DNA of 64,000 bases from the NCBI RefSeq assembly GCF_041261205.1, contig NZ_JBGCCH010000001.1, forward strand, positions 372,001 through 436,000, written 5' to 3'. The first letter of the stretch is position 1, and every line of letters begins with the position of its first letter. A model generated the notes under the pieces. That model had not been told where the DNA came from, ran no database searches, and saw nothing but the letters and a program-made list of their open reading frames with translations. Below, in pieces: positions 15,140 to 28,341 of the stretch. Position numbers and translations under genes: made by a program. This stretch comes from Catenulispora sp. MAP5-51 (GTDB taxonomy: Bacteria > Actinomycetota > Actinomycetes > Streptomycetales > Catenulisporaceae).

Positions 15140-15955
15140 GTGCCGAATGCCAGTTTCCCGGGCGTCGAGTCCGTCATCGACGATATAGCCAAATGTGAAC
15201 TGAGATATCGCGATCGTGCTGAAGAGGGGGTGCTCGCCGAGGAGGAGCTTTTGGAACTTCTTGACAGCTGCCTTCCGCCCCTGATCTACGCGTTCGACAT
15301 CCAAGTCCCTCCACCGCGTGAACGCGGCGGGGCATTGGCTCTCGAGAAGGAGTTCTACGAGTGGCGTGACACGACGAGCGGAGACCCGGAGGCCCGCCGC
15401 GCCGCCGTCATCCGGTCCTATCTGGCCTCTGAGACGGAGCGCCGCGGTCAGTTCCGCCTCAGCCGCTCCCAGAACGGGCGAATAGCCGCCCACTACGACG
15501 CCCTCGGTGGGGAGTTCTCAGCACTCGGCCTCCCCGGCCACGCGGTCCTGACGTTCCAGGTCGCGGCAGACCTCTACGCTTCGGTCCAACAGAAGTCCCG
15601 GCGGCAGCGTTCGCTGTTGAACGGGCGCCGAGCGCAGCACGCGGCGCGGCCGCCCGGCGCGGTGCGTGTCTTGGAGACTCTCCTCGACGCCGCCTGCGGC
15701 TATGGCTATCGCCCATTCCGGATGCTGAGCTGGATGGCGGTGACGCTGGCCGTGTTCAGCGTGGCGGTGTGGTCGGCCGGCTCACCCGGGTATGTGCGGT
15801 CGCTGCACGGGTGCTTGATCAGTTTCCTGAACCCGCTGGCCTTCGGGTCGCTGGATGCCGACTTCGGTCCGGTCGCGCAGGTTCTGCTGATCATCGAGAG
15901 CTACATCGGGTGCGTTTCCATGGCGATCTTCTTCGCGTTCCTGGTCCGGGACTGA
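15140..15955 (+). CDS. Ion-channel-like membrane protein, copy A
   Basis: 271 aa, GTG start without a clear ribosome site. The N-terminal ~185 residues are helical and soluble. Two hydrophobic helices (about 194-212 and 248-269) flank a re-entrant-like segment with NPLAFGS at 231-237. The C-terminal half matches the protein at 21672-22517: both have GYGYRPxRxLxW, a FxNPxxxG pore-like segment, and ES/ETY before the last helix. The layout is that of two-helix potassium-channel pore domains, but this copy lacks the GxGD filter-like tetrapeptide of the other. Function is inferred only. It stands just upstream of cassette A. Confidence 0.55.
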   Translation: MPNASFPGVESVIDDIAKCELRYRDRAEEGVLAEEELLELLDSCLPPLIYAFDIQVPPPRERGGALALEKEFYEWRDTTSGDPEARRAAVIRSYLASETERRGQFRLSRSQNGRIAAHYDALGGEFSALGLPGHAVLTFQVAADLYASVQQKSRRQRSLLNGRRAQHAARPPGAVRVLETLLDAACGYGYRPFRMLSWMAVTLAVFSVAVWSAGSPGYVRSLHGCLISFLNPLAFGSLDADFGPVAQVLLIIESYIGCVSMAIFFAFLVRD

Positions 15956-16411
15956 GCACGGGGGCTCGCGATGTTCGGATGATCCGCCTGGTGGCTGGTG
16001 CGGGGTTTGGGAAGCTATTTGTAGAAGGCTCATAAGGGGTGGCGGACCAGGGGTGCGATGTATCAGGCCTCGTTGTGTAAAACCTCCAAGAAGGTCGACG
16101 ACTGTGCTCTGACTGTGCTCTGACTGTGCTCTGCGATGGCCGGTAAGCGTCAGGGTTCGCCGTCTTCGTCATTCGTCCCTGCTGTGAGTACTCTGACTCC
16201 TCCGAACGTGCGCCCATTCGGTGCACGGTGAGTACTGTCGGCAGCAGCTCCGTCACGTTATGATGCCAGTGGGCGGTCGCGAGGCGGACACTGACAGGGC
16301 GCTTCAAGAGCGTGGCAACCCTGATTAAACGTTCGGTAAGAACACTGATAAACTCTGCCGTCGGCTCCTCATCGACTCGTCTTCCGGGTTCGACATCAAT
16401 AGGCGGCTTTA
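15956..16411. other. Intergenic region upstream of cassette A, rich in short repeats
   Basis: 456 bases with no convincing gene. It contains three tandem gactgtgctct copies (16100-16132), two gtgagtact copies (16184-16192 and 16228-16236), and tgacaggg at 16292-16299. The last also occurs upstream of cassette B on its coding strand. No clear sigma-70 promoter was found. Confidence 0.5.
16100..16132 (+). repeat. Three tandem 11-bp repeats
   Basis: gactgtgctct occurs three times head to tail, at 16100, 16111 and 16122. The period matches about one DNA helical turn, so repeated protein contacts would lie on one face. A fourth ctgtg lies at 16182-16186. Confidence 0.75.
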
Positions 16412-18265
16412 GTGAGAATTCAGCCTCGCAAACAGATTTTGGACATCTGGCGATCCATGCTGGCCGAGTGCTACCGCGACCAACAATGGTCCTGGGGCGG
16501 CCGGGTCGAGTCCAATGCGATTTCCGACGCCGAGCAACTGCTCTGTCTGATGTATCCCATCACCCAGATCGAGACCTTCGCGATTCACGACCCGGACAAG
16601 ACCCAGGAAGACGTGCGCCGAGCGCTGCGGCCGCTGGGACAGGCCACGAACATCCCGCGGGCGCTGGTGGACGTGGCGTTGGAGTACTTCAAGAAACACA
16701 CTGATGAGCGAGGCGAGCCGAACTTCGCCGCCGGCAGTTATCTGCGCGCGATGTCCCCGGAGACTCCTTTGCCGGAGGACGCCGTCCTGCTGCAACTCGA
16801 GACCGTCGACGGCTACTCGATGTCCATCACGCTGTGTCTGTCGCTGATGGTGTTCGTGAATGACCGTACGCCACGGGAAGCCCAGCCCAAACAGCGGGAG
16901 AAACTGGTCGACCTGAAGGAGAAGGCCTCGCGGCGGCTCACCGCGGCGATGGTCGGTCTGCTGCGCAGCTTCGTGGTGAACTCCGTGGGCTCGGACTCCG
17001 ACCAGGGCCGGGCCATCCTGGAGATGCTCCGCCAGGGGGACACCACCGACGCCGAGCTCCAGCAGGGCCTCAGGGACCGTTTCGACCGGCTGCGCAACCA
17101 GCTCAAGACCGACGTGCGCCTGGGTGTCGCCGAGGAGAGCAAGCCGGACGAGGACCAGTTCTTCGAGTGCGGCTGGACCTGGGGCGTCGCCAAGGACGCC
17201 CGGAAGATCGTCGAGTACGCCTCGGACTTCGACATGTCCTCCCGGCCCGGTTACGCCATGGCCCGTCCCTGGCTGTACTTCACCGTGTCCGCCCTCGACG
17301 GTATCGTCGACCTCACGTCCCGCCGTATCAGGGCGCTCAACATCCTCGACAGCGAGCAGCGCTCGCTCTCGGACGCGCTGGGAGTGCGCTGGGACCTCAC
17401 GCAGCGTTACTGGTCTGCGATCGCGCGCTTCGACGACGAGGAATGGCCGCTGGCGGACATCCCCTGGCGTACCAGTGACGGCGAGGAGTCCGACTACTAC
17501 TCCCTGCTGGTCGTCTCGGTGCTGATCCAGGACCTGGTCAACCGCACCGCCAACGACGCCGACCTGGTCAAGGCCGTCGGCATCATCGAGGAACTGGCCC
17601 GGCGCGGACGCATCACCAGCCGGATGACCGAGAACGATCCGGCCGCGGCGATGCACTACCCGGGGGTGCGCCAAGGGCTGAGCGGCAGTGAGGAAGCGGT
17701 GGGCTCGCACTTGGCGCTGTACTCCGCCGACTATTCGCCGCTGATCATCAAGCGGTCCCTGCAGGCCGCGCAGCTGACCGACAACGTCGAAGCCCGTGAG
17801 GCGCTGATGGTGGTCGCCGAGGCGGCCATGGACCATCTGGACGATCGCCGGCTGACCCGCGGCGAGGAGTCGGTCGAGCTGTGGGACGACCTGGGCCACC
17901 TGCCGGGCATGGAGGCGTACACGTTCGAGCGGCCCTCCTGGTACCTCACCGAGCGCGTGGTCGAGGCGCTGGTCGCCGCCGCCAGCGCTTTCGAGCAGGA
18001 ACCGCCGCGCAGTTCCCGGATGTACGACCATCTGCTCCGCCTGCTCAACGAGGCCGACCACGTCTACAACCAGGAGCTGATGCGCTCGAACGTGGACGAT
18101 CGCTCCACGCTGCGCGAACGGCTGGAGGAGATCGGGCAGCTCATCAAACGGGCCCGTGAACTGCGCAACCGCCGCACCAGCACCGCGATCGCCTTGTCCG
18201 AACGGGCTCTGCGCCTGCTGGACGCCCTCGAGGAAGCCGACCTGGACGCCGGGCGGAGTCGCTGA
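16412..18265 (+). CDS. SCO2524-like cassette protein, copy A
   Basis: 617 aa, no known enzyme domain. It begins RIQPRKQILDIWRSM and has WSWGGR, NAISDAEQLLCLMYP and FFECGWTWGVAKDA, all matched in copy B at 25566-27401. The C-terminal ~150 residues are helical, with an Arg/Glu-rich coiled-coil-like end. From memory it corresponds to the family named after S. coelicolor SCO2524; that assignment rests on motif recall. GTG 16412 has aggcgg 5 bases upstream. The stop abuts the next ATG with no gap, indicating translational coupling to the P-loop protein. Confidence 0.7.
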   Translation: MRIQPRKQILDIWRSMLAECYRDQQWSWGGRVESNAISDAEQLLCLMYPITQIETFAIHDPDKTQEDVRRALRPLGQATNIPRALVDVALEYFKKHTDERGEPNFAAGSYLRAMSPETPLPEDAVLLQLETVDGYSMSITLCLSLMVFVNDRTPREAQPKQREKLVDLKEKASRRLTAAMVGLLRSFVVNSVGSDSDQGRAILEMLRQGDTTDAELQQGLRDRFDRLRNQLKTDVRLGVAEESKPDEDQFFECGWTWGVAKDARKIVEYASDFDMSSRPGYAMARPWLYFTVSALDGIVDLTSRRIRALNILDSEQRSLSDALGVRWDLTQRYWSAIARFDDEEWPLADIPWRTSDGEESDYYSLLVVSVLIQDLVNRTANDADLVKAVGIIEELARRGRITSRMTENDPAAAMHYPGVRQGLSGSEEAVGSHLALYSADYSPLIIKRSLQAAQLTDNVEAREALMVVAEAAMDHLDDRRLTRGEESVELWDDLGHLPGMEAYTFERPSWYLTERVVEALVAAASAFEQEPPRSSRMYDHLLRLLNEADHVYNQELMRSNVDDRSTLRERLEEIGQLIKRARELRNRRTSTAIALSERALRLLDALEEADLDAGRSR

Positions 18266-19192
18266 ATGCTGATCTTCTCCTCCTCCGACAAGGGGGGCAC
18301 CGGTCGGTCGGTGACCAGCTGCAACATGGCCTACCGGCTGTCGCTGCTCGGCCGCGACGTGGCCTACCTCGACTTCGACTTCGGCTCGCCCACCGCCGGG
18401 GCGATCTTCGAGATCCCGAAGCTGGAGCGCGGTACCCACGAGGGCGGCCTGCACTCCTTCATCTTGGGCGAGACGACCGTGCCGGCCCGGGTCGACATCC
18501 GGAAGGTCACCGAGCGGCCGGCGCTTCAGGAGCGGCCCTCAGGCTCTGGTAGATTGACGCTTTTCCCCGGGGACGTGGGAGGTGCGGAGTTCCATCTCAC
18601 CGACGACCACATCAAGGCGGCCATCAGGTTGTTCCAGGCGGTCGAGCGGGAATTCGACGTCTGCATCGTGGACCTGAGCGCCGGCCGCTCCTCGGCGCTG
18701 GACATGTCCCTGAACGCGATCTCACCCCGGGTCCGCAAGAAGTCCAAGGACAGCAACGATCGTGTCCGCTGGCTGTTGTTCCACCGCTGGACCACGCAAC
18801 ACGTGATCGCCGCGGGCGGCCTGCTGTTCGAGGAGAACGGCATCCTGCCGTGCGCCATCGAGGCCGGCTTCGACAAGACGGAGTTCATGCGCCTGGTGCG
18901 CACAGTCCGCACCGCCGTCCCGGACTCCTCGGCGTTCGGCCAGAAGACCACCGCGGAGCAGACCCGCTGGGTGGTCCGCAGCGACGACCACCTCAAGGCC
19001 CTGGCCCAGGGCCGGGGACTGGGGCAGGACCTGTTGGCCGGGACCACGCCGCTGGAGCCGATGCTCCTGTGGCGGGAGCAAGTGATCATGGACCTGGACG
19101 TCAATCGCCGGCTGGCCAAGCCCGCGACCACCCAGGCTTTCGACAAGTTGGCCGTCCGGGTCGTCGACGACCATGCCTGGGAGGGTTTCTGA
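18266..19192 (+). CDS. ParA/MinD-like variant P-loop protein (SCO2523-like), copy A
   Basis: 308 aa. The N-terminus has the deviant Walker layout of ParA/MinD proteins, SSDKGGTGRSVTSCN (about 6-20), but Arg14 stands where the second lysine normally is. The Walker A' region AYLDFDFGSPTAG (about 34-46) and FDVCIVDLSAGRSS are also present. ParA/MinD proteins bind ATP and pattern themselves on membranes or DNA; with Arg14 ATP hydrolysis is doubtful while binding may remain. From memory this matches the family called SCO2523 variant P-loop protein. It shares one base (TGATG) with the next gene. Confidence 0.8.
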   Translation: MLIFSSSDKGGTGRSVTSCNMAYRLSLLGRDVAYLDFDFGSPTAGAIFEIPKLERGTHEGGLHSFILGETTVPARVDIRKVTERPALQERPSGSGRLTLFPGDVGGAEFHLTDDHIKAAIRLFQAVEREFDVCIVDLSAGRSSALDMSLNAISPRVRKKSKDSNDRVRWLLFHRWTTQHVIAAGGLLFEENGILPCAIEAGFDKTEFMRLVRTVRTAVPDSSAFGQKTTAEQTRWVVRSDDHLKALAQGRGLGQDLLAGTTPLEPMLLWREQVIMDLDVNRRLAKPATTQAFDKLAVRVVDDHAWEGF

Positions 19193-20205
19193 TGACGGTG
19201 ACGGCGCACGGCGCGCCACAGGCGCCGGTCTTCCGGGAGCGCAGTCAGGGCACCACCGTGCAGAACCTGCCGCTGTCGCACCTTTCGGTCGAGGTCGGCC
19301 ACTTCTACATGGAGGACCTCGAGAACGGCGAGGAGCCGATCAGGGCGCAGTTCGAGCGGGTCAAGCCGTGGCTGGCCGCCGCCGAGGCCTCGGTGCTCTG
19401 CGGGACGGAGAAGCCCCGCGTGAGCACGTGCTTCTTGATCGACGACTACTTCCAGCGCTGGCCGGATGCCGGGAACATAATCGAAAAACTGCTGCGCCTG
19501 TCCAAGGACGCGGGAGTCCGGATCGACTACTTCGCCCGCGAGTCGTCCTGCGCCGTCCGGGCCGACGGGACGCGCGTGGCCGAACTCGTCGCCCGCCGCC
19601 TGCTGCAGGAGCCGGAGCCGGAGGTCACCACCGGTTCCCGTCCGCCGGCGGTGCGGTCCGGCTGGCTGGCCAACGGCAAGCCGGCCCGCGAGGGCAAGGT
19701 GCTCTCCGCCATGCGGGGCCATGCCTGGGAACCCTCGGTCGAGTTCAGCAAGCGGAACCACTCGATCTTCCTGGACGTGGAGCTGTGGCGGGACTTCGCC
19801 GAGCCCGGCGCCGACGAGGACGCGGTCCTCGCCGGGAGGCAGTACTCCTGTCCCTTTCTGGCGGCTGTCTGGCAGTTGATCCGGCTCGGGCTGCTGCGCC
19901 ACGACGGCGCGCCGGCCCTGGCGGTCGCCGAGGCGCCGGCGCGCTGGTCGAACGACTGGGCCGTGTTCCCGGACATCGTGAAGGTCAATCCGGCGGCCAA
20001 GCCCTTCTACGCCTACCGGGCGCTGAGCATCATGCCGCGCGACTTCCTCGGCATCGAGCACGCCGTGCGGACCATCGTCGACCATTTCCTGGTCGATCCC
20101 GGGGTCGACGAGTCGCTGCACCTGCGCGCCGGGGAGAAGGGTGTGCCGCTGCCGGATGCCGTGGCCGACCGGGTGAGCCACCACTTCCTCGACGGCGTCG
20201 ACTGA
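19192..20205 (+). CDS. SCO2522-like cassette protein, copy A
   Basis: 337 aa, soluble, no named domain. Motifs PLSHLSVEVGHFYMEDL (about 25-41), VSTCFLIDDYFQRW and AVWQLIRLGLLR are conserved in copy B (23610-24647). The S-T-C-F-L-[IV]-D-D-Y string is the most striking and could be an active site or metal site, but this is not proven. It is named here after the SCO2522 family from memory. ATG 19192 overlaps the P-loop gene stop and its own stop overlaps the next ATG, so the cassette is translationally coupled. Confidence 0.68.
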   Translation: MTVTAHGAPQAPVFRERSQGTTVQNLPLSHLSVEVGHFYMEDLENGEEPIRAQFERVKPWLAAAEASVLCGTEKPRVSTCFLIDDYFQRWPDAGNIIEKLLRLSKDAGVRIDYFARESSCAVRADGTRVAELVARRLLQEPEPEVTTGSRPPAVRSGWLANGKPAREGKVLSAMRGHAWEPSVEFSKRNHSIFLDVELWRDFAEPGADEDAVLAGRQYSCPFLAAVWQLIRLGLLRHDGAPALAVAEAPARWSNDWAVFPDIVKVNPAAKPFYAYRALSIMPRDFLGIEHAVRTIVDHFLVDPGVDESLHLRAGEKGVPLPDAVADRVSHHFLDGVD

Positions 20206-21176
20206 TGGCGCGCCCCGGCGCGCCTTTGGAAGCCCCTGCCAGGCACTCGCCGGCCGTGGTCCTGGGCGTGGTCGTCACCAACCTGCTGAACACCTCCGAG
20301 CCGTTGCCGCTGGAGGCGGGGCGGCAGGCGCTCAAGCTGCTGCCGGGTGTCGGCGCCGACTGGCGCAGCCACCCGGTGGACCAGGTCGTGTCCCCGGACT
20401 TGTTCTACGGGGTGGACTGCGGCCTGGCCACCAGCCGCACCCAGCCGCGCGTCGTCGGCACGGTCCGCGCCCGCGCCCTGCTCACCGGCGGGCACATGCT
20501 GCAGGGCTCGGCGCGCGTGGACGTGGTCCTGGACGCCTCCACGCGCCGTATGCCGTGGTCGTACTACGCCGCGCGCACCGGCACGGTCGAGGCGGTGAAC
20601 AAGGCCGACCCGGCCGACCTGGTGGCCGGGTTCCTGTCCACCGATCCCGGCGGCGGCCTGCTGGACCTCGCCGGGATCGGGGCCCACGTCATGTCCCGGC
20701 TGGACGAGGTGCCGCAGGTGGACCGCCAGGCGCGGATGCACACCGAGGCCGGTCTGCTCCGCTGGGCGGTGCTGGTGCGCGACGACGGCGAGTTCCAGGC
20801 GGAGGTCGTGGCCGGCCACGACGGCGGCTTCCGGGTGCGCATGACCGCGCCGCTGGCGATGCTGGCGAACATCGTCGAGTTCTGCGAGATCCTGGCGCTG
20901 CACCACTGGCTGCTGGCGGCGCTGAAGAACGCCTTCGACCGCGCCTCACGCTCCCGGCGGCCGATGGACGAGCTGGGCCCGGCCCTGAGCTATCTGGGCC
21001 ACATGTGGAACCCGACGGCCTACCTTCCGGCCGCCACCGCGTGGATCTGGGAGGCACTGGAGCACGAGGCGCAGTTGACATGGGGATGGCAGTCCACTTT
21101 GACCCGGGTACGGGACAAAGTGTCGCTGTTGACACAAAAAGCGATCGAAGAGACCCTGCACAAGGAGTTCGGGTAA
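20205..21176 (+). CDS. SCO2521-like cassette protein, copy A
   Basis: 323 aa, soluble, unrecognised outside its family. VSPDLFYGVDCGL and FCEILALHHWLL align with VSPEQVTGVDCRL and FCEEFALHEWLL in copy B. The C-terminal 100 residues are helical with several Trp. It shares base 20205 with the preceding stop. It is the last gene of the four-gene cassette; an acetyltransferase follows 27 bases later. Named after SCO2521 from memory. Confidence 0.68.
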   Translation: MARPGAPLEAPARHSPAVVLGVVVTNLLNTSEPLPLEAGRQALKLLPGVGADWRSHPVDQVVSPDLFYGVDCGLATSRTQPRVVGTVRARALLTGGHMLQGSARVDVVLDASTRRMPWSYYAARTGTVEAVNKADPADLVAGFLSTDPGGGLLDLAGIGAHVMSRLDEVPQVDRQARMHTEAGLLRWAVLVRDDGEFQAEVVAGHDGGFRVRMTAPLAMLANIVEFCEILALHHWLLAALKNAFDRASRSRRPMDELGPALSYLGHMWNPTAYLPAATAWIWEALEHEAQLTWGWQSTLTRVRDKVSLLTQKAIEETLHKEFG

Positions 21177-21203
21177 GGCTTCGATCGATAGTCAGGGGAC
21201 GGG

Positions 21204-21773
21204 GTGGGGGACCCTCTATCAGTGAGAACGGCGCGCCCGGGAGATCTGTACCGCATCGCAGAACTCGAAAGCCTGCTGTTCGGCTCAACGGGATTCTCGC
21301 TCTCCGCGCTCCTTCAATTGTACGGAACCTCGGGGGAAGCGTGGCTGGTGGCCGAGGATCTTCAGGGCGTCTGGGGCTACGCGCTGACCGCGCGGGGCAT
21401 GGACGATCCACGGGTCGGCTGGATCCTGGCGCTCGGCGTCCACCCCGAGCGCCAGGGTGAGCACATCGGACGGGCGTTGCTCGACGAGTCGATCGTCGAG
21501 CTGCGCAGCCGGGACATGGACACCATCAAGCTCACGGTCGCGCCGGACAACCGGGCGGCCTACGGCTTGTACGAGCAGGCACGGTTCAAGGACACCGGCC
21601 AGTTCAAGGAGGTCGGGGACGGCAAGCCGCGTAAGATCCTCACCCTGCTGCTGCCCACCGCGCCCCTGCCCTCACAACCGGAAGAGCCGGCGGATGAGCA
21701 GCACGAAGAACAGATTCCGGAAGACGTCGCCGGTATACGTTTCGATCTCCAGGACCGGTTTCCATGGGCCTGA
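21204..21773 (+). CDS. GNAT acetyltransferase linked to cassette A
   Basis: 189 aa, GTG 21204 preceded by AGGGGA. A RimI-like core is visible: RTARPGDLYRIAELE at the start, the acetyl-CoA segment LALGVHPERQGEHIGRALLDE, then NRAAYGLYEQARFKDTG. The last ~35 residues are acidic and lie antisense to the end of the channel-like gene, overlapping it by 102 bases. GNATs of this type acetylate protein N-termini or small amines; the target is unknown. Its position 27 bases after the cassette suggests co-transcription. An alternative GTG at 21222 lacks a ribosome site. Confidence 0.75.
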   Translation: MGDPLSVRTARPGDLYRIAELESLLFGSTGFSLSALLQLYGTSGEAWLVAEDLQGVWGYALTARGMDDPRVGWILALGVHPERQGEHIGRALLDESIVELRSRDMDTIKLTVAPDNRAAYGLYEQARFKDTGQFKEVGDGKPRKILTLLLPTAPLPSQPEEPADEQHEEQIPEDVAGIRFDLQDRFPWA

Positions 21774-22517
21774 CAGCAGCCTGACGTCGCCCAGCCCCAT
21801 CGGGTTCACGAAGTTCTGCACGGCGACGTAGAAGGCCTCGGACTCGGTCGCACCCCCGGTGCGGGGCAGAGCGAGCAGCCACACCGTGAACCCCGCGACG
21901 AGGCCGATGATCCACACCAGCAGCCGCAGCGGCCGGTATCCGTACCCGAACAGCACGGCTTGCAGGTCCGCCAGCAGCCGCTTGCCGCTCCAGCGAGGCA
22001 GCGACACCCGGTGCGCCGCGGCCGCGAGGTACTTGCAGTTGTCCTCCGCCGAGGAGTCGTTGAACCTCCGGTACAGCGTCCCGGCGTGGCGGAACGCGTT
22101 CTCGGCGAACAGCGGCAGCCCGGCGGCCAGGAGGGAGGCGCCGGCCGTCTCCAGGGAGCCGCCGATGACGGCGGCGTCGCTCTCGCTGAGCCACTTCTGC
22201 CCGTAGGCCTCCACGTACGCCGCGAGGAGCGCCGCTATCTCCGGCGCCAGCACCTCTTCGAATACGACGTCGGCCTGGTGGAACTCCTCCAAAGCCAGCA
22301 CCACCGACGCGGCCCCGCCGGCCTTGATGAACCGCTGCCGCGCCAGCTTGGACCGCTTGACGTACTCCTCGAGGATTCCCCGCTCGACCTCGGCCAGCCG
22401 GTCCTGGCGGCGAGCCCGCGCCAGTTCCTCGGCGATGGCGTTCGCCGCGGAGATCAGGCTGTCCTTGAACGTGTCGAGCGGCGCCGCGTCCTCCCTGGCG
22501 GGTCCGCCGATCACCAC
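21672..22517 (-). CDS. Ion-channel-like membrane protein, copy B
   Basis: 281 aa, GTG start. About 190 helical soluble residues come first (coiled-coil-like at 25-60). A membrane helix (about 197-217), a pore-like loop with NPMGLGDV (238-245) and a second helix (about 255-277) follow, with a basic end (RRLFRL). GLGD resembles the GYGD selectivity filter of two-helix potassium channels. It shares GYGYRPLRLLVW and ETYTG with copy A at 15140. Channel activity is inference. It follows cassette B on the same strand, 146 bases after the SCO2521-like stop. Confidence 0.58.
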   Translation of the reverse strand: MVIGGPAREDAAPLDTFKDSLISAANAIAEELARARRQDRLAEVERGILEEYVKRSKLARQRFIKAGGAASVVLALEEFHQADVVFEEVLAPEIAALLAAYVEAYGQKWLSESDAAVIGGSLETAGASLLAAGLPLFAENAFRHAGTLYRRFNDSSAEDNCKYLAAAAHRVSLPRWSGKRLLADLQAVLFGYGYRPLRLLVWIIGLVAGFTVWLLALPRTGGATESEAFYVAVQNFVNPMGLGDVRLLSGPWKPVLEIETYTGDVFRNLFFVLLIRRLFRL

Positions 22518-22555
22518 GGTTGTTCCGCCCGGCCCGTCCCGTTCATCGCTTCCCC

Positions 22556-22611
22556 CTGTGACCTGCTGTGACTCCGCTGTGTCGGATCAAAGCAGCATGG
22601 AACATGCTGTG
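22556..22611 (+). repeat. Phased CTGTG motifs beside cassette B
   Basis: ctgtg occurs at 22556, 22566, 22577 and 22607, three of them 10-11 bases apart, between cassette B and its channel-like gene. The same pentamer is repeated at 11-base spacing upstream of cassette A. The motif is short, so chance is not excluded. Confidence 0.4.
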
Positions 22612-22663
22612 ATACCCATTGCCATGAACATTCCTGATATTAGCGGCTCGGTGCGGTGCGGTC

Positions 22664-23629
22664 TCACAAACGTCGCGGTGGTCTGATCTTCACCTGGTCT
22701 CGCAGGTCCCGTATCCGGGCGACCTGGCGTTCGAACAGGCGCGAGTAGTGCGTCCGGCTCTCCATCACCTCCCACAGAACCTTCATGTCCGGGCTGAGGT
22801 GCGTGGGCGGCATCCACAGCGGGACCAGCTCGTTCAGGGCGAACAGCAGGGAGTCCAGGGGATCGCGGTCTCGGGCGATGTCCGTCTCGGCTCGCGGGAC
22901 GATCACGTCCTGCACCGTGGTGAGCAGCCACTCGTGCAGCGCGAACTCCTCGCAGAACCGGATCAGCATCGGAAGATGGTCCGGTGCGCCGCTGAGGCGG
23001 ATGATGTGGACGTTGGGCAGATCGCTCTTGGCGATGCCGACGGTCGGCCCGCTGTCCGGGGCAAGGGTCACGGCCCAGCGGACCACGGCCGTACTGGCCC
23101 GCAGCGCGGTGGTGTGGTCCAATCGGCTGCTCATCTGGACCTCGTCGATGACGCGGTCGCTGATCGAGGCCAGATCCAGGCCGCGGGCCGGCGAGATGTC
23201 CGCCAGGTAGCCGTCCAGGACGTTGTGCGGGTGCGGCGATCCGATCACCTCTACGACGCCAGGGCGCTGTAGGTAGTGCCGCCATTCCCTGCGATCTTTC
23301 GAAGACGCGGGCGTGAGCGTCACGTGCGCGATGCCTTGCAGGATCCGGCCGTTGGTGACGGTCGCGTGGCTGAGGACCGTACCGATCGCCCGGCCCCGGC
23401 CCTCGCGGGCCACCTGCAAGCGGCAGTCCACGCCGGTGACCTGCTCCGGGGAGACGACGCGGCGCACCGGCCGGTCCGCCTTGCTCACCGGGGCGCCGGG
23501 GGTGAGCTGCATCAGGGCGACGCTCGCCGAGGGGGACAGTGTGCCCAGGTTCTGGATCAGGCACGTGCGGACCTCGCCGAAGGCCAGCACCGCCGGCGCG
23601 CCGTCGCGCTCAGTCGTTGTGCGCGACAT
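22664..23629 (-). CDS. SCO2521-like cassette protein, copy B
   Basis: 321 aa from ATG 23629 (ATG 23638 is an alternative; neither has a clear ribosome site). VSPEQVTGVDCRL, the following GRAIGTVLSHATVTNG and FCEEFALHEWLL correspond to segments of copy A at 20205-21176. It is much diverged from copy A, so the two copies are not a recent duplication. It overlaps the upstream SCO2522-like gene by 20 or 29 bases. No enzymatic motif is visible. Confidence 0.65.
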   Translation of the reverse strand: MSRTTTERDGAPAVLAFGEVRTCLIQNLGTLSPSASVALMQLTPGAPVSKADRPVRRVVSPEQVTGVDCRLQVAREGRGRAIGTVLSHATVTNGRILQGIAHVTLTPASSKDRREWRHYLQRPGVVEVIGSPHPHNVLDGYLADISPARGLDLASISDRVIDEVQMSSRLDHTTALRASTAVVRWAVTLAPDSGPTVGIAKSDLPNVHIIRLSGAPDHLPMLIRFCEEFALHEWLLTTVQDVIVPRAETDIARDRDPLDSLLFALNELVPLWMPPTHLSPDMKVLWEVMESRTHYSRLFERQVARIRDLRDQVKIRPPRRL

Positions 23630-24647
23630 GGACGTCATCGAAGAACAGGTGGCTTGTCCGGCCGACGGGATTGTCGGGCAGGACGATCGGGTTCGCTTCG
23701 TCGCGGGCCCGGTCGGCGGTCTGGGCCAGGACCGCCGGATCGAACCGCAGATGGTCGATGATGATTCGCGCGGCATGTTCCGCAGCCTCGTAGTGCTGCG
23801 GGAGCGCGGAGAAGGTCTCGTAGGCTGCGAACGGGGCCGCGTCCTGAGTCAGCTGCGTGATGCTCGGCATCTGCGCCCACAGGTCGGGCAAAGCCTCACC
23901 GGTACCGAACCGGTACGGCTTGGCCACTGCCTTCCCCGCGTTGCGCAGCAGGCCCAGCCGCAGCAGCTGCCACACCGCCGACAGCAGCGAGCACGAGTAC
24001 TGCCGCTCAGCGTGTATCTGAGCGCTGTCCAGGCTCCACAGCTCGATGTCGACGAACACCGAGTGCCGGTACTTGCCGAACTCCTCCGGCGGCTCCCAGT
24101 CCGGGGCGTCCATCGCCACCGCGACGGCCGGCGAGCGCTCGCCGTTGGACAGCCACCCGGTCTGCGCGGTCGGCGGCCGGGAGCCGTTGGCGCCCACCGC
24201 CGCCTCCTCGACGATCAGTCCGGCGACGATGTCGGCCAGCGGGCTCTGGTCGCGCGGGCCGGAGTAGGGGCGCTCGCAGGCCACCACGCAGCCGGCCTCC
24301 CGGGCCAGGTAGTCGAGCCGGAAGCCGGCCTGTTCGGCGGCGGTGGTCACGATGTCCACCACCTCCGCGGGCTTGGGCTGGTCCGGCGCCGAGCCCGAGG
24401 GCGTGTAGTCGTCGACCAGGAAGCAGGTGCTTATGCGGGCGTTGCGGCCGAACCGCTTGCGGATCCGCTTGTTCGCCGCCTCCAGCCACGGCGCGGCATG
24501 CTCCAGCTGGCGGGCGATCTTGCGGTCGCCCTCGGCGAAGTCGTCCAGATACAGGTGACCGGTCTCGACCGAGAGATGGCCCAGCGGCACCGCGTCCACT
24601 CGCGGGGTCTGGGTCACTTCGTCGTAGCTGACGTCCACGGCCGTCAC
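23610..24647 (-). CDS. SCO2522-like cassette protein, copy B
   Basis: 345 aa. The GTG start at 24647 overlaps the P-loop gene stop in a GTGA arrangement, with GGGAAGGG just upstream. PLGHLSVETGHLYLDDF, ISTCFLVDDY and AVWQLLRLGLLR match copy A. The C-terminus ends with a SHLFFDDVHVA segment similar to the SHHFLDGVD end of copy A. Soluble, function unknown. Confidence 0.68.
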   Translation of the reverse strand: MTAVDVSYDEVTQTPRVDAVPLGHLSVETGHLYLDDFAEGDRKIARQLEHAAPWLEAANKRIRKRFGRNARISTCFLVDDYTPSGSAPDQPKPAEVVDIVTTAAEQAGFRLDYLAREAGCVVACERPYSGPRDQSPLADIVAGLIVEEAAVGANGSRPPTAQTGWLSNGERSPAVAVAMDAPDWEPPEEFGKYRHSVFVDIELWSLDSAQIHAERQYSCSLLSAVWQLLRLGLLRNAGKAVAKPYRFGTGEALPDLWAQMPSITQLTQDAAPFAAYETFSALPQHYEAAEHAARIIIDHLRFDPAVLAQTADRARDEANPIVLPDNPVGRTSHLFFDDVHVAHND

Positions 24648-25564
24648 AGCCCTTCCCAGAATCGCTCGTCCGACAGCTTCGCGGCGAGGTCCTCGAAGGC
24701 CTGCACGGTGGCCTGGTTGGCGATTTTCAGTCCGCTGACGTCCGAGTCGTCGATCACTTGCTCGCTCCACTGGAGCATCGGGTCGTAAGGGATCTGCCCG
24801 GCCAGCCGGGCCCGGCCCATGCGCAGCTTGTCCGCCTGTTCCCGCAACTTCCGGTCGTAGGCGCGCAGCCACGCGGCCTGTGCCGGCCGGGTCACCGATT
24901 CCTGGTCCACGCCCAGATCCACGACCGCGGTCCGGACGTAGCGGACGGAGTTGTTCAGCCTCTGGGCGTCGTGGCCGCGGCGCTCGCCCGCTTTGAGCAG
25001 TCCCTTCTCGCCGAACACCAGGCCGTGCGCGGCCACGATGTGCTGCTTGGTCCAGCGGTGGAAGACCAGCCAACGGCTGGTCAGCGCGGCCAGCTCGGGC
25101 CGGGCGGTGGCCTCCAGGACCAGGTCCACGGCATAGGAGCGGCCCGCGGACAGGTCGACGATGCACAGGTCGAATTCGCGGTCCAGCTTCAGGAACAGCT
25201 GCGCGCAGCGGGCCGGCATGTCCGCGCTGATCGAGAACTCCCCGCCGTCCCTGTCGCCGGGCAGCAGGACCAAGCGGCTGGCGCCGGAGATGCGCGGCAG
25301 GTCGCGCAGCGTGTCGCTGTCGGAGTGCAGCGCGGTGTCCAGCTGCTGGGCCTCGGTGTGCTTCGTGAAGTAGGAGTGCAGGCCGCAGGAGTCCACGCCG
25401 CGCTCGGCCTTGGGGACGTCGAAGATCGCGCCCGCGGTCGGTGAACCGAAGTCGAAGTCGAGGTAGGCGACGGCCTCCCCTTGCAGCGCCCGCCGGTAGG
25501 CCATGTTGCAGCCGGTCACCGAGCGCCCCGTGCCTCCCTTGTCGGAGGTGGCGAATATCAGCAC
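24644..25564 (-). CDS. ParA/MinD-like variant P-loop protein (SCO2523-like), copy B
   Basis: 306 aa, GTG start one base after the preceding stop. It has TSDKGGTGRSVTGCNMAYRR (about 7-26), with Arg14 again in place of the Walker lysine, AYLDFDFGSPTAGAIFD, and FDLCIVDLSAGRSYAVD. The middle regions differ strongly from copy A, but the nucleotide-binding segments are almost identical, including the Arg. This argues that Arg14 is selected rather than a chance loss. It is likely a nucleotide-dependent scaffold or switch for the cassette. Confidence 0.8.
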   Translation of the reverse strand: MLIFATSDKGGTGRSVTGCNMAYRRALQGEAVAYLDFDFGSPTAGAIFDVPKAERGVDSCGLHSYFTKHTEAQQLDTALHSDSDTLRDLPRISGASRLVLLPGDRDGGEFSISADMPARCAQLFLKLDREFDLCIVDLSAGRSYAVDLVLEATARPELAALTSRWLVFHRWTKQHIVAAHGLVFGEKGLLKAGERRGHDAQRLNNSVRYVRTAVVDLGVDQESVTRPAQAAWLRAYDRKLREQADKLRMGRARLAGQIPYDPMLQWSEQVIDDSDVSGLKIANQATVQAFEDLAAKLSDERFWEGL

Positions 25565-25565
25565 G

Positions 25566-27401
25566 TCATGCGCTCCTGCTCGCCGCCTGGCGCGCGAAGG
25601 CCAGTTCGTCCAACTCTCTGAGCACCTTGTCGGCCAGCGCCGCGGCGGTCGCGGGCCGCTCGCGGGACAGGGACTCGGCGCGGTTCAGCGACTGTTCGGC
25701 CTCCCGGAGCAGCTTCTGCTCCTGCGAGCCGCCGGCCGTGGGCGTGGTCAGCCGCTCCTGGTCCAGGATGTGCCGGGCCTCGGCGATCTTGGTGTTCGCC
25801 TGGTCGATCTGGCCGGGGTCGGCCACGGGAGGGGCGCTGATCAGGGTCGCGGCGGCGACGAAGACCTCGATGGCACGTTCGGTCATGTCCCAGGACGGGG
25901 TGGCGGGGGACGGCGGGAGGCTGGGGAAGACGTTCGCCGGGTGGTCCCACAACCCGTCGGGCTGCAGACGGCGGTTGAGGAGGTGCTCCACCGAGGCGTC
26001 GGCGATGTCGATGAGCCGGGCGCGGTTGCGCCGGCCGGTGGTGACGCTCGCGATGCGCAGCGCGGTCTTGGCCAGCGTGGCGGCGTAGCCGTTGGAGGAC
26101 CAGGCCAGCATCGGGCCTTCCAGCTCCGAGCCGTGCAGCGTCATCCGGACGCCGGGATCGTGCAGCAGCACGCTGCGGTCGTCCTCGGAGGCGCGCCGGT
26201 TGACCAGACCGCGCTGGGCCAGCTCCTCCACCACGGCCACGGCACGGCCGATGACGCTGCCCGAGGGCAAGCTCTGCTGAGCTATGGCGACGATGGAGAG
26301 CACGAGCTCGGAGAAGTAGGGCGAGCTCTGGCCGTCGGTGGACTGCCAGGGGACGTCCTCCACCGGCCAGCGGCCGGCGCCGAACGTCGCGATCGTGGAC
26401 CAGTACTGCAGCGCCAGGCCCCAGCGCAGGTTCAGCGCCTCGCGCAGGGACTGCTGCTCGGAGGTCAGCAGCCCTTGGCGGGAGGTGCGGGTGGAGAAGA
26501 GGTCGGCCAGACCTTCCAGCGCGGCGACTGTGAAATGCAGCATCGGACGCGGCTCGGCGATCCCGTGCGGCTGCCTCACATGCGCCGCGGCTGGCAGGTC
26601 GATCTCGGTGGCGTCCTGCGCCACCCCCCAAGTCCATCCGCACTCGAAGAAACGCTCCGGATAGTCGCGCAGCGCCTGCTCGTTCTCCGGCGGCAGGCCG
26701 AAGGTGAGCTCCGGCAGTTTGTCGCGCACCGGCTGCAACTGGCCGCGCAGGTCCTGAGTCAGCGTGCGGCCCACGACCCGGCCCTGGCTGACGGTGCGCA
26801 GCAGCACGGCCTCCGCCGGGGTGTCCGGGGTCAGCACGTTCACCACGAACGAGCGCAGCAGGCCGGCCAATGCCGCGGTCAGGCGCTGGCCGATGGCCAG
26901 GACGGTGGCGTCGATCCGGCTCTGCAACTCGCGGCGCTCGACCGTACGCTGGAACTCGCGCAGAAAGCCCTTCGCCGACAGACACAGCGTGACCGAGATC
27001 GAATACGACTCGGTGATGTCGTAATCGGCCTGCTCGGGCTTCACCTCGTTGTCGGCATCCTCGGGCAGCAGGTAGGAACCGCCGGTGAAGGTCGGTGCGC
27101 CTTCGTCGTCGACGTAGCGCGTGAGGTACTGCTCCAGCGCCTCGAGTATCCGCATCGGGACGTCCAGGCCGCTGCCCATCGGCCGCAGCACCGCGAGCAC
27201 GTCGTCCTCGATCGCGTCCGGCCGGTCCAGGCGGAACCCGGGAACCTCGGTCGCGGGATAGAGGAGTACCAGGATCTGCTCGGCGTCGCTGATGCTGTTC
27301 GAACTGTAGCGGCCACCCCAGGTCCACTCTCCGGTGGCGAACGTGGCGCGTGCGAAGCTCCGCCACGTCTCCAGGATGTGTTGTCGCGGATTCGTCCTCA
27401 A
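25566..27401 (-). CDS. SCO2524-like cassette protein, copy B
   Basis: 611 aa. I place the start at TTG 27401 because AGGGGG lies 7 bases upstream and because LRTNPRQHILETWRS then aligns with the start of copy A. An ATG at 27431 would add ten Gly/Arg residues. WTWGGR, NSISDAEQILVLLYP and FFECGWTWGVAQDA are conserved with copy A. The C-terminal 150 residues are helical and charged. First gene of cassette B; a 13-base palindrome lies about 50 bases upstream. Confidence 0.7.
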   Translation of the reverse strand: MRTNPRQHILETWRSFARATFATGEWTWGGRYSSNSISDAEQILVLLYPATEVPGFRLDRPDAIEDDVLAVLRPMGSGLDVPMRILEALEQYLTRYVDDEGAPTFTGGSYLLPEDADNEVKPEQADYDITESYSISVTLCLSAKGFLREFQRTVERRELQSRIDATVLAIGQRLTAALAGLLRSFVVNVLTPDTPAEAVLLRTVSQGRVVGRTLTQDLRGQLQPVRDKLPELTFGLPPENEQALRDYPERFFECGWTWGVAQDATEIDLPAAAHVRQPHGIAEPRPMLHFTVAALEGLADLFSTRTSRQGLLTSEQQSLREALNLRWGLALQYWSTIATFGAGRWPVEDVPWQSTDGQSSPYFSELVLSIVAIAQQSLPSGSVIGRAVAVVEELAQRGLVNRRASEDDRSVLLHDPGVRMTLHGSELEGPMLAWSSNGYAATLAKTALRIASVTTGRRNRARLIDIADASVEHLLNRRLQPDGLWDHPANVFPSLPPSPATPSWDMTERAIEVFVAAATLISAPPVADPGQIDQANTKIAEARHILDQERLTTPTAGGSQEQKLLREAEQSLNRAESLSRERPATAAALADKVLRELDELAFARQAASRSA

Positions 27402-27450
27402 CGCGCCGCCCCCTGATCTGCCCCTGAACACCTCCGTCAGCCACTGCCTA

Positions 27451-27540: not shown

Positions 27541-28341
27541 TCAGAACCGGTACTCGTAGGGAGTCGTGACGCTCAAAGCCCGAAAGCCCAGCCGCTCCAG
27601 AATCGGCCGGCTCATGTCCGAGGCGTCCACCTGCAAGTACTCGCACCCCAGCTCCACCGCCACCCGCATCCGCCGCGCCACCAGCGCGCGGTAGATCCCG
27701 CGTCCGCGCCAGTCCGGCGCCGTTCCGCCGCCCCACAGGCTCGCGAAGCCGGTGCCCGGGTGCACGAGCATGCGGGCCGCGCTCACCGGCTGGTCGCCGG
27801 CCATCGCGAGCCAGGTCCACACCGTGTCGGGGTCGGCGGCCAGGCGGGCCAGCGCGCGGTCCCGGGAGCGTTCGCCGCCGCTGCCGAAGGCCGCGTCGTG
27901 GGCTTGGCCGACGAGGTCGGCGTCGGCTTCGGTGGTGACCGGGCGGAAGGTGACGCCTTCGGGCAGGGTTTCGGTCAGGCCGGCGGCTGACAGCTGTGTG
28001 ATCTCCGCCACGAACAGGGTCTCCGGGGCGTCGGCTTCGAAGCCGGCGGCGAGCAGGCGGGCGGCGAGGTCCGCGGGTTCGTCGTGGCTGTAGTGCTTCC
28101 ATTCGAAGTCGGCGCCCAGGGTGCGGAAGTAGGCGATCTGCTCCTGGATCGCGGCGTCGGCGGTGGCCGGGTCCAGGTCGGAGTACAGGACGCCGTGCCA
28201 GTCCGAGGGCCGTGCGCCGACGACGCGTACGACGCCGCCGGTGCGCTCGACGCGCTCGCCGGGCTCGTCGGTCTCGGCCTCGGCGCGCATCCGCCGGTCG
28301 AATGCCGCGAGCAGGTTCTTGTCGGTGGTGGGGGAGGTCAT
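27541..28341 (-). CDS. GNAT acetyltransferase, two-domain
   Basis: 266 aa. The C-terminal GNAT fold (about 140-260) has GVTFRPVTTEADADLVGQAH, the acetyl-CoA loop GTAPDWRGRGIYRALVARRM and LGFRALSVTTPYEY. The N-terminal 130 residues form a degenerate second domain, as in several actinobacterial GNATs. Substrate unknown. It is divergent from the riboswitch-gcvP unit. Confidence 0.8.
   Translation of the reverse strand: MTSPTTDKNLLAAFDRRMRAEAETDEPGERVERTGGVVRVVGARPSDWHGVLYSDLDPATADAAIQEQIAYFRTLGADFEWKHYSHDEPADLAARLLAAGFEADAPETLFVAEITQLSAAGLTETLPEGVTFRPVTTEADADLVGQAHDAAFGSGGERSRDRALARLAADPDTVWTWLAMAGDQPVSAARMLVHPGTGFASLWGGGTAPDWRGRGIYRALVARRMRVAVELGCEYLQVDASDMSRPILERLGFRALSVTTPYEYRF

What the first reader, a model, noticed from the sequence alone, without database searches (positions are those of the whole stretch)
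15140..27401. Two divergent copies of a variant P-loop cassette facing each other
Genes at 16412-21176 (plus) and 22664-27401 (minus) encode the same ordered set: a 610-620 aa protein, a ParA/MinD-like variant P-loop protein, and two proteins of about 320-345 aa. In both copies the genes abut or overlap. The copies are strongly diverged apart from core motifs, so this is not a recent duplication. A pair of ion-channel-like membrane proteins and an acetyltransferase sit with them. I recall the S. coelicolor SCO2521-SCO2524 families, whose role is unknown. Two paralogous sets side by side suggest two versions of one machine, perhaps with different partners or signals.
Basis: partly seen in the sequence, partly recalled or inferred. 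Interest (0 to 1): 0.85.

Follow-up and report, generated by a model that had tools for sequence, protein, structure and literature searches.

The report
Two ancient SCO2521-2524 cassettes, swappable partners
Two old, separately evolved copies of an uncharacterised four-protein actinomycete machine sit side by side; in relatives the same core keeps company with different membrane or cell-death-type proteins, which suggests an alarm or defence-like device rather than a recent duplication.

Summary
Both cassettes encode SCO2524-2523-2522-2521 in order, tightly packed; all eight proteins pass the NCBIfam cut-offs. The genus is Catenulispora. Each of the 10 genus genomes sampled carries an A and a B cassette. 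A and B are not sister clades (AU p 1.1e-67).

New here: a tree of 112 cassettes splits in two. In one clade of 30 (A and B included), 27 have a channel-like membrane protein nearby and 3 the SCO2525-type methyltransferase. Of the other 82, 67 have a DUF6879 protein and 67 the methyltransferase. None has both partners. In one sub-clade a DUF4062-NACHT-HEAT protein takes the partner's place; DUF4062 is reported in a 2026 preprint as an antiphage NADase. Single variants adjoin caspase-VMAP/AAA/CHAT or AAA-WD40 genes.

Predicted folds: SCO2522 like class I aminoacyl-tRNA synthetase catalytic domains (no sequence support), SCO2524 an (alpha/alpha)6 barrel, SCO2523 ParA/MinD without the P-loop lysine.

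Best reading (0.45): a signal-transducing core driving exchangeable effectors, conflict or cell-fate type. No function was tested.

The parts
16412..18265 (+). Cassette A SCO2524-family protein (617 aa), predicted (alpha/alpha)6 barrel
   Evidence: NF040567 E 9.6e-212; model mafd82586a7f5, VIA-align Z 20.9 to 5x32
18266..19192 (+). Cassette A SCO2523-family ParA/MinD-like protein, P-loop DKGGTGRS (Arg for the P-loop Lys)
   Evidence: NF040564 E 7e-125; ParA fold Z 24.0; motif count
19192..20205 (+). Cassette A SCO2522-family protein, predicted class I aminoacyl-tRNA-synthetase-like catalytic fold
   Evidence: NF040566 E 2e-111; fold seen on a Frankia relative, model mad6659bfcb2b, Z 12.0 to 2zue
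20205..21176 (+). Cassette A SCO2521-family protein, fold not identified
   Evidence: NF040565 E 7.7e-88
15140..15955 (+). Channel-like membrane protein CHAN1 (271 aa), 456 bp upstream of cassette A
   Evidence: two hydrophobic segments; homologues near 27 of 30 cassettes of the same clade
21204..21773 (+). GNAT acetyltransferase (RimI-like), 27 bp after cassette A
   Evidence: PF00583 E 3e-12; GNAT homologue near 25 of 30 cassettes of the clade
21672..22517 (-). Channel-like membrane protein CHAN2 (281 aa), 146 bp after B-2521 on the same strand
   Evidence: alignment with the CHAN family; one clear C-terminal-half hydrophobic segment
22664..23638 (-). Cassette B SCO2521-family protein
   Evidence: NF040565 E 2.7e-83
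23610..24647 (-). Cassette B SCO2522-family protein
   Evidence: NF040566 E 8.5e-107
24644..25564 (-). Cassette B SCO2523-family ParA/MinD-like protein
   Evidence: NF040564 E 4.6e-133
25566..27431 (-). Cassette B SCO2524-family protein (start uncertain)
   Evidence: NF040567 E 2.5e-204
27541..28341 (-). GNAT-like protein next to cassette B, found at 10 loci of the genus set (role in the system unsure)
   Evidence: PF00583 E 4.8e-07; cluster c8 in 10 of 39 loci

Best explanation
Each cassette encodes a cytosolic four-protein signalling core of a conflict or cell-fate type system. SCO2523, a ParA/MinD-fold protein whose P-loop lysine is arginine, would be the nucleotide-dependent switch. SCO2522 (class I aaRS-like fold) and SCO2524 ((alpha/alpha)6 barrel) would sense or make the trigger. 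SCO2521 would hand the signal to the partner. The partner is the effector and can be exchanged: a channel-like membrane protein (window type), a mostly membrane-anchored DUF6879 protein, or a DUF4062-NACHT-HEAT protein that would deplete NAD+. Shown: families, gene order, age of A and B, exchange of partners, 2521-partner linkage, predicted folds. Inferred: complex formation, switching, direction of signalling, effector action. A and B would be two separately inherited channels of the same subtype.
For: Partner exchange on one core: C7 (DUF6879)/CHAN changes once on a 112-cassette tree; CHAN 27 of 30 and C7 0 of 30 in one clade, C7 67 of 82 and CHAN 0 of 82 in the other. C7 lies directly after 2521 on the same strand in 61 of the 68 loci (redundant set) with both genes, and in 21 of these the 2521-C7 pair is inverted as a block relative to 2523. 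Homologues of a DUF4062-NACHT-HEAT protein at 10 of 119 loci by blastp (Pfam-scanned in 3 of the 10); in 6 of the 10 it lies between 2522 and 2521, where many related Micromonosporaceae have C7; in 4 of 8 such genomes it is the only DUF4062 match at E <= 1e-6. DUF4062 is reported as an antiphage TIR-like NADase (PMC13174449, preprint: abstract and passages). One variant (L117) puts 2523+2521 in one tight run with CHAT, AAA_5-type and caspase-VMAP-C genes. MinD/ParA-like domains predicted inactive are described in such systems (PMC7159879, passages).
Against: No function was tested. The window itself carries no known effector domain; the channel nature of CHAN rests on a non-significant profile match (P 0.07-0.08), and the hydropathy scan finds two segments in only 17 of 33 CHAN proteins and none in 9 of 78 C7 proteins. 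The CHAN clade is recovered in the 2523 and 2522 single-gene trees but not in the 2524 tree. PADLOC gives only weak P-loop similarity for the core. No match for 2523 on plasmids or viral contigs; shared flanking genes in several Streptomyces-type loci and presence in every genus member sampled look more like a housekeeping or developmental system than a mobile defence system. L117 is one genome: nothing nearer than 50% identity in 394 class genomes. The DUF4062 association is essentially one clade. SCO2525 is reported to be needed for normal growth (citing a paper not held).
Confidence: 0.45

Rival explanations
1. A small-molecule biosynthesis pathway: SCO2522 activates a substrate as class I aaRS-like ligases do, SCO2524 is an epimerase- or cyclase-like barrel enzyme, SCO2525 methylates and the GNAT acetylates the product, SCO2523 is a chaperone or loader, and the membrane protein exports or senses the product. 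The product would act in growth and development.
For: Folds of SCO2522 (ArgRS/MetRS/CysRS/MshC-like, Z up to 12.0) and SCO2524 (AGE-like, Z 20.9); SCO2525-family proteins match NNMT/PNMT/TEMT methyltransferases (2 scanned); GNAT homologues near 61 of 112 cassettes; SCO2525 described as a putative methyltransferase needed for normal growth, operon sco2521-sco2526 in the HupS regulon (PMC11472566, passage).
Against: SCO2525 is missing from 10 of 10 Catenulispora genomes that keep two cores, so the methyltransferase is dispensable to the core. A NACHT-HEAT protein, or CHAT/caspase/AAA neighbours, are odd in a biosynthetic operon. No sequence support for the aaRS relation.
Confidence: 0.27
2. A spatial-organisation system: SCO2523 is a ParA/MinD-type positioning protein for a hyphal or septal complex, anchored by the membrane partner.
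For: ParA/MinD/FlhG/McdA are among the best structural matches; most named carriers belong to mycelial genera (list; their habit is recalled); growth link of SCO2525.
Against: The P-loop lysine is replaced in 119 of 119 distinct SCO2523 proteins (117 R, 1 Q, 1 T), and positioning ParA/MinD need ATP cycling (recalled). Only 63 of 245 sampled genomes of the order carry it, so it is dispensable for hyphal growth.
Confidence: 0.13
3. A and B are a recent within-genus duplication that diverged fast.
For: They lie side by side and share the same partner kinds.
Against: Held-together tree rejected (p-AU 1.1e-67); A and B each monophyletic across the genus, and A+B not, in each of three single-gene trees.
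Confidence: 0.02

Closest known systems
SCO2521-SCO2524 families (NCBIfam NF040564-NF040567) and the S. coelicolor operon sco2521-sco2526
   Same: All four families, order and packing; eight proteins over the curated cut-offs.
   Different: The window has no SCO2525 methyltransferase and no DUF6879 partner; it has channel-like membrane proteins, GNAT genes and two cassettes.
NTP-dependent ternary conflict systems (vWA-MoxR-VMAP; Kaur et al. 2020, PMC7159879, passages seen)
   Same: Multi-component, P-loop NTPases, exchangeable effectors, actinomycetes among the carriers, MinD/ParA-like domains predicted inactive; one Catenulispora variant (L117) joins 2523+2521 to an AAA_5-type and a caspase-VMAP-C gene.
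   Different: No MoxR, vWA or VMAP matched among the 12 window proteins scanned; SCO2522 and SCO2524 were not in the passages seen (the whole paper was not read).
DUF4062/Swarozyc TIR-like NADases (PMC13174449, preprint, abstract and passages)
   Same: A DUF4062-NACHT-HEAT homologue stands at 10 of 119 loci.
   Different: None in the window's genome at E <= 1e-6; an association with this core was not among the passages seen.
ParA/MinD ATPases
   Same: Fold (Z 24.0); signature lysine kept in 117 of 119.
   Different: P-loop lysine replaced in 119 of 119.
Class I aminoacyl-tRNA synthetases and MshC
   Same: Catalytic-domain fold of SCO2522: the first 36 of the 50 rows listed by VIA-align are of this kind.
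   Different: No detectable sequence similarity; too short for an added anticodon-binding domain (inference); HIGH/KMSKS not established.

Membership tests
SCO2521-SCO2524 cassette | Each protein over its NCBIfam cut-off | tested here: met
   8 of 8 proteins
SCO2521-SCO2524 cassette | Order 2524-2523-2522-2521, tightly packed | tested here: met
   window; elsewhere 2524-2523 gap <=20 bp in 126 of 127 gene pairs measured
S. coelicolor-type operon with SCO2525 | SCO2525 methyltransferase present | tested here: not met
   0 of 10 Catenulispora genomes at E <= 1e-10
vWA-MoxR-VMAP ternary system | MoxR, vWA and VMAP genes with the core | tested here: not met
   none of the 12 window proteins scanned matches them (10; GNAT and c8); the rest of the window was not scanned. 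Variant L117 elsewhere has an AAA_5-type and a VMAP-C gene, no vWA seen
ParA/MinD ATPase | ParA/MinD fold | tested here: met
   Foldseek E 3.4e-7, VIA Z 24.0
ParA/MinD ATPase | P-loop lysine (KGGxGK[ST]) | tested here: not met
   R in 117, Q in 1, T in 1 of 119
Class I aaRS superfamily (SCO2522) | HUP/class I catalytic fold | tested here: met
   Z 12.0, rmsd 3.2, 202 aligned to 2zue, on the model of a Frankia relative; Foldseek itself gave no match under E 1e-3
Class I aaRS superfamily (SCO2522) | Sequence homology and HIGH/KMSKS motifs | tested here: inconclusive
   no PDB sequence hit; hhalign to MshC, CysRS and ArgRS best P 0.066, over other parts of the proteins; an ExGH string at A residues 34-37 is only a lead
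AGE-type (alpha/alpha)6 barrels (SCO2524) | Fold over the barrel | tested here: met
   5x32 Z 20.9, rmsd 4.0, 338 residues aligned of 380
AGE-type (alpha/alpha)6 barrels (SCO2524) | Catalytic residues | not tested
   no residue-level superposition was available
2TM potassium-channel family (CHAN) | Pore/selectivity-filter homology | tested here: inconclusive
   no channel family among the Pfam answers for 6 CHAN proteins; hhalign to Ion_trans_2 proteins P 0.07-0.08, setting NPLGxGD against TTVGYGD
Swarozyc-type DUF4062 system | DUF4062 protein in the genome | tested here: not met
   0 matches at E <= 1e-6 in G000

The most novel reading that the evidence does not exclude
An undescribed class of bacterial signalling or immune system in which a class I aaRS-like enzyme and an (alpha/alpha)6-barrel protein make or read a chemical signal, a lysine-less ParA-like switch gates it, and SCO2521 plugs in one of several effectors (membrane pore, DUF6879, DUF4062-NACHT NADase), as in CBASS or Thoeris but with unrelated parts; Catenulispora keeps two separately inherited copies as parallel channels.
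Probability: 0.25. Interest if true: 0.87.

Novelty: new variant of a known kind. Interest (0 to 1): 0.6.

Why it matters
Four NCBIfam families present in many actinomycetes have no assigned role that these searches could find. This work links them to a specific architecture (pseudo-ParA switch, aaRS-like fold, alpha/alpha barrel), shows two old subtypes that differ in partner, and finds an NADase-type STAND protein in the partner's place in one lineage. That gives direct tests (phage challenge, NAD+ loss, pull-down of 2521 with its partner) in strains that are easy to handle, and may help explain why a methyltransferase gene of the S. coelicolor operon was tied to growth and development.

Tried and rejected
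Recent duplication: rejected. Known defence system by PADLOC: only weak P-loop or repeat matches for the core and the partners scanned, plus a caspase model match for an L117 neighbour. Mobile element or phage origin: no match for 2523 on plasmids or viral contigs (two short patterns); the phage-record collection was not searched. Solved relatives by sequence for 2521, 2522, C7, CHAN: none, apart from one E 0.57 hit for CHAN. Sequence link of SCO2522 to MshC, CysRS or ArgRS: none. The first attempt was faulty because loci of the genome search are not turned to the match strand, so wrong frames were read; still held some wrong frames for these sets; one search is the corrected run (12 MshC, 11 CysRS, 14 ArgRS rows). 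SCO2521 fold: no convincing match (CorA-like helices, Z 6.1 at best; viral library no match under E 1e-3). More L117-type loci: none nearer than 50% identity in 394 genomes. Literature: SCO2521-2524 by name gave one paper; KGGVGR, 'variant P-loop', 'SCO2523 family' gave nothing relevant; SCO2525 three papers (passages seen); one search gave nothing on this cassette in its listing. Gehring et al. 2004 is not held; its content is known here only through PMC11472566 and recall. PMC8195603 (passages) and the BldB paper PMC10294661 (passages) were opened for a link to inactive NTPases and to DUF6879/AbaA; no link to this cassette was established.
Full report
OBSERVATION. The window lies in a 10.9-Mb genome. 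Its genus is Catenulispora: contigs of 'same genus' genomes have the same lengths as named Catenulispora contigs (G397 C670, 37,140 b = C. pinisilvae; G398 C246, 65,667 b = C. pinistramenti). Two convergent cassettes encode SCO2524, SCO2523, SCO2522 and SCO2521 in this order, all over NCBIfam cut-offs. A and B share 32-49% identity. Around them are two channel-like membrane proteins, one RimI-like GNAT and one further GNAT-like protein.

DISTRIBUTION. With NF040564 (SCO2523) over its cut-off: 10 of 10 genus genomes, 14 of 14 family genomes, 63 of 245 order genomes, 37 of 394 class genomes, 7 of 396 phylum genomes (each count includes the window's own genome; the last three samples were drawn evenly from larger groups and share members). 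The 10 genus genomes have two copies over the cut-off, G396 three. By best match each of the 10 has one A and one B, on one contig in 9; in G401 they are on two contigs. An alignment scan of genome contigs found 455 relatives, of which the best 80, with named records, were kept.

AGE OF THE PAIR. FastTree on concatenated 2524-2523-2522 of 112 distinct cassettes (from 133 found; 7 incomplete ones and exact repeats were dropped) puts A with Frankia-group, Pseudonocardiales-type and f4 genomes, and B with Actinospica. IQ-TREE on a chosen 30 rows (6 A, 6 B, 10 others of the clade, 8 outgroup) agrees, and the AU test rejects A+B as one clade (p 1.1e-67). Three single-gene trees each give A and B as separate clades and no A+B clade; 2521 was not treed. 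The stem of A is long (0.85), so its exact sister is less sure (support 81 for A with f4). Orientation of A and B differs within the genus (convergent in the window, divergent in L119, L120, L132, L133), but both are kept.

PARTNERS. Of 119 loci (a redundant set), 69 have a DUF6879-type gene (C7), 28 the channel-like gene (CHAN), none both, 22 neither (homologues found by blastp at E <= 1e-5 with seeds from a few loci, so 'neither' can hide remote relatives). On the 112-row tree the C7/CHAN state changes once (67 C7, 27 CHAN, 18 not counted). The CHAN clade (30 rows) has CHAN 27, C7 0, SCO2525-type methyltransferase 3, GNAT 25; the rest (82 rows) C7 67, CHAN 0, methyltransferase 67, GNAT 36. 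The three CHAN-clade rows without CHAN are L119_A, L119_B and L154_A. Taken gene by gene, the CHAN clade is recovered by 2523 (0.78) and 2522 (1.00) but not by 2524. Among the 15 rows without a partner in the larger group, nine carry a DUF4062-protein homologue (L174, L177, L183, L188, L196, L200, L205, L217, L226; a tenth, L230, is not in the tree); Pfam shows DUF4062-NACHT-HEAT in the three scanned. These nine rows and L184, which lacks it, form one clade. In L200 the frame is broken. The other five (L125, L141, L147, L207, L227) show no recognised partner. C7 follows 2521 directly on the same strand in 61 of 68 loci with both genes; in 21 of the 61 the 2521-C7 pair is inverted against 2523 as a block. 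This ties 2521 to the partner more than to the rest of the core.

MEMBRANE CHARACTER. A plain hydropathy scan finds two segments in 17, one in 15 and three in 1 of 33 CHAN proteins, and one in 39, two in 27, three in 3 and none in 9 of 78 C7 proteins; it also finds one or two such segments in 70 of 130 SCO2524 proteins, so it is crude. In the CHAN alignment an NPLGxGD stretch lies between the two C-terminal segments.

RARE VARIANTS. L117 (G396, third copy) has 2523+2521 only, preceded on the same strand by a protein with a partial CHAT match (1223 aa), an AAA_5-type protein (MoxR-like by my inference) and a caspase-VMAP-C protein; ends overlap except for 31 bp between the last two. L129 (Actinospica genus, G408) has 2524-2523-2524 next to a convergent AAA_16-WD40 protein. 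L168 has a CHAT-TPR protein some 3.7 kb downstream on the other strand. These are single cases.

FOLDS. The chain 2524+2523 of cassette A was predicted at mean pLDDT 93.5; 2522+2521 of a Frankia-group locus (L149) at 88.3. Because the genes were read as one chain, contacts between them must not be read as evidence for a complex, and none were examined. SCO2523: ParA/MinD fold. SCO2524, about residues 1-534: (alpha/alpha)6 barrel, closest among listed chains to mannose isomerase and cellobiose 2-epimerases (Z about 20). SCO2522: class I aaRS-type domains, MshC and CysRS included, fill the first 36 of 50 rows (Z 12.0 down to 7.7); Foldseek alone gave nothing under E 1e-3, and sequence comparison gives no support. 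SCO2521: not identified. A profile alignment sets NPLGxGD of CHAN against TTVGYGD of channels, not significantly (P 0.07-0.08).

P-LOOP. Of 119 distinct SCO2523 proteins, 117 have R, one Q and one T where ParA/MinD have the P-loop lysine; the signature lysine is kept in 117. Kaur et al. 2020 (PMC7159879, passages) describe MinD/ParA-like domains predicted to be inactive in conflict systems, some of them in actinobacteria.

MECHANISM. The pattern (constant core, partner exchanged at few nodes of the core tree, partner next to one core gene, partners that include membrane proteins and an NADase-type STAND protein) is that of a sensor-transducer with replaceable effectors. DUF4062 proteins were reported as TIR-like NADases giving abortive infection (PMC13174449, preprint; abstract and passages). 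The motif S-I-T-E-x-E-Y, which I take to hold the catalytic Glu (inference), is present in 10 of 10 DUF4062 loci. Against a pure defence role: retention in every Catenulispora sampled, shared flanks in several loci of the Streptomyces-type group, and the growth link of SCO2525 (citing Gehring 2004, not read). I therefore hold 'conflict or cell-fate signalling' at 0.45 and a biosynthetic reading at 0.27.

STANDING. The families are known and of unknown role; searches by name found no description of the system. The subtype split, the DUF4062-NACHT partner, and the SCO2522 and SCO2524 fold assignments are, as far as these searches show, new.

Noticed in passing
L117:8638-18639 (G396, third copy): 2523+2521 without 2522/2524 sit in a tight run with CHAT, AAA_5-type and caspase-VMAP-C genes; the P-loop reads GKGGAGQT.
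   Followed up: partly
L129:3602-12535 (G408): Arrangement 2524-2523-2524 with a degenerate P-loop (AQGGVGTT), convergent with a 1432-aa AAA_16-WD40 protein; 2522 and 2521 not found in the 20 kb.
   Followed up: partly
window 15956-16411: 456-bp intergenic stretch before cassette A with 58% G+C against 71% for the window; a possible regulatory region.
   Followed up: no
G000:C4:129070-129183 and homologues in the genus: Open frames of 1327-1462 aa with a KGG-type P-loop stretch match the SCO2523 profile weakly in each of the 10 genus genomes; perhaps a larger protein with the same variant domain.
   Followed up: no
L119, L120, L132, L133 against the window: Orientation of A and B flips between convergent and divergent within the genus, with GNAT and membrane-protein genes relocated and GNATs multiplied.
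   Followed up: partly
L231 (record titled Candidatus Melainabacteria): A 3.2-kb contig with 2524-2523-2522 at actinomycete-like identity, probably mis-binned.
   Followed up: no
L200:12968-14988 and L184: The DUF4062 protein's frame is broken in L200, and in the related L184 it is gone with the methyltransferase directly next to 2521: decay of the partner.
   Followed up: partly
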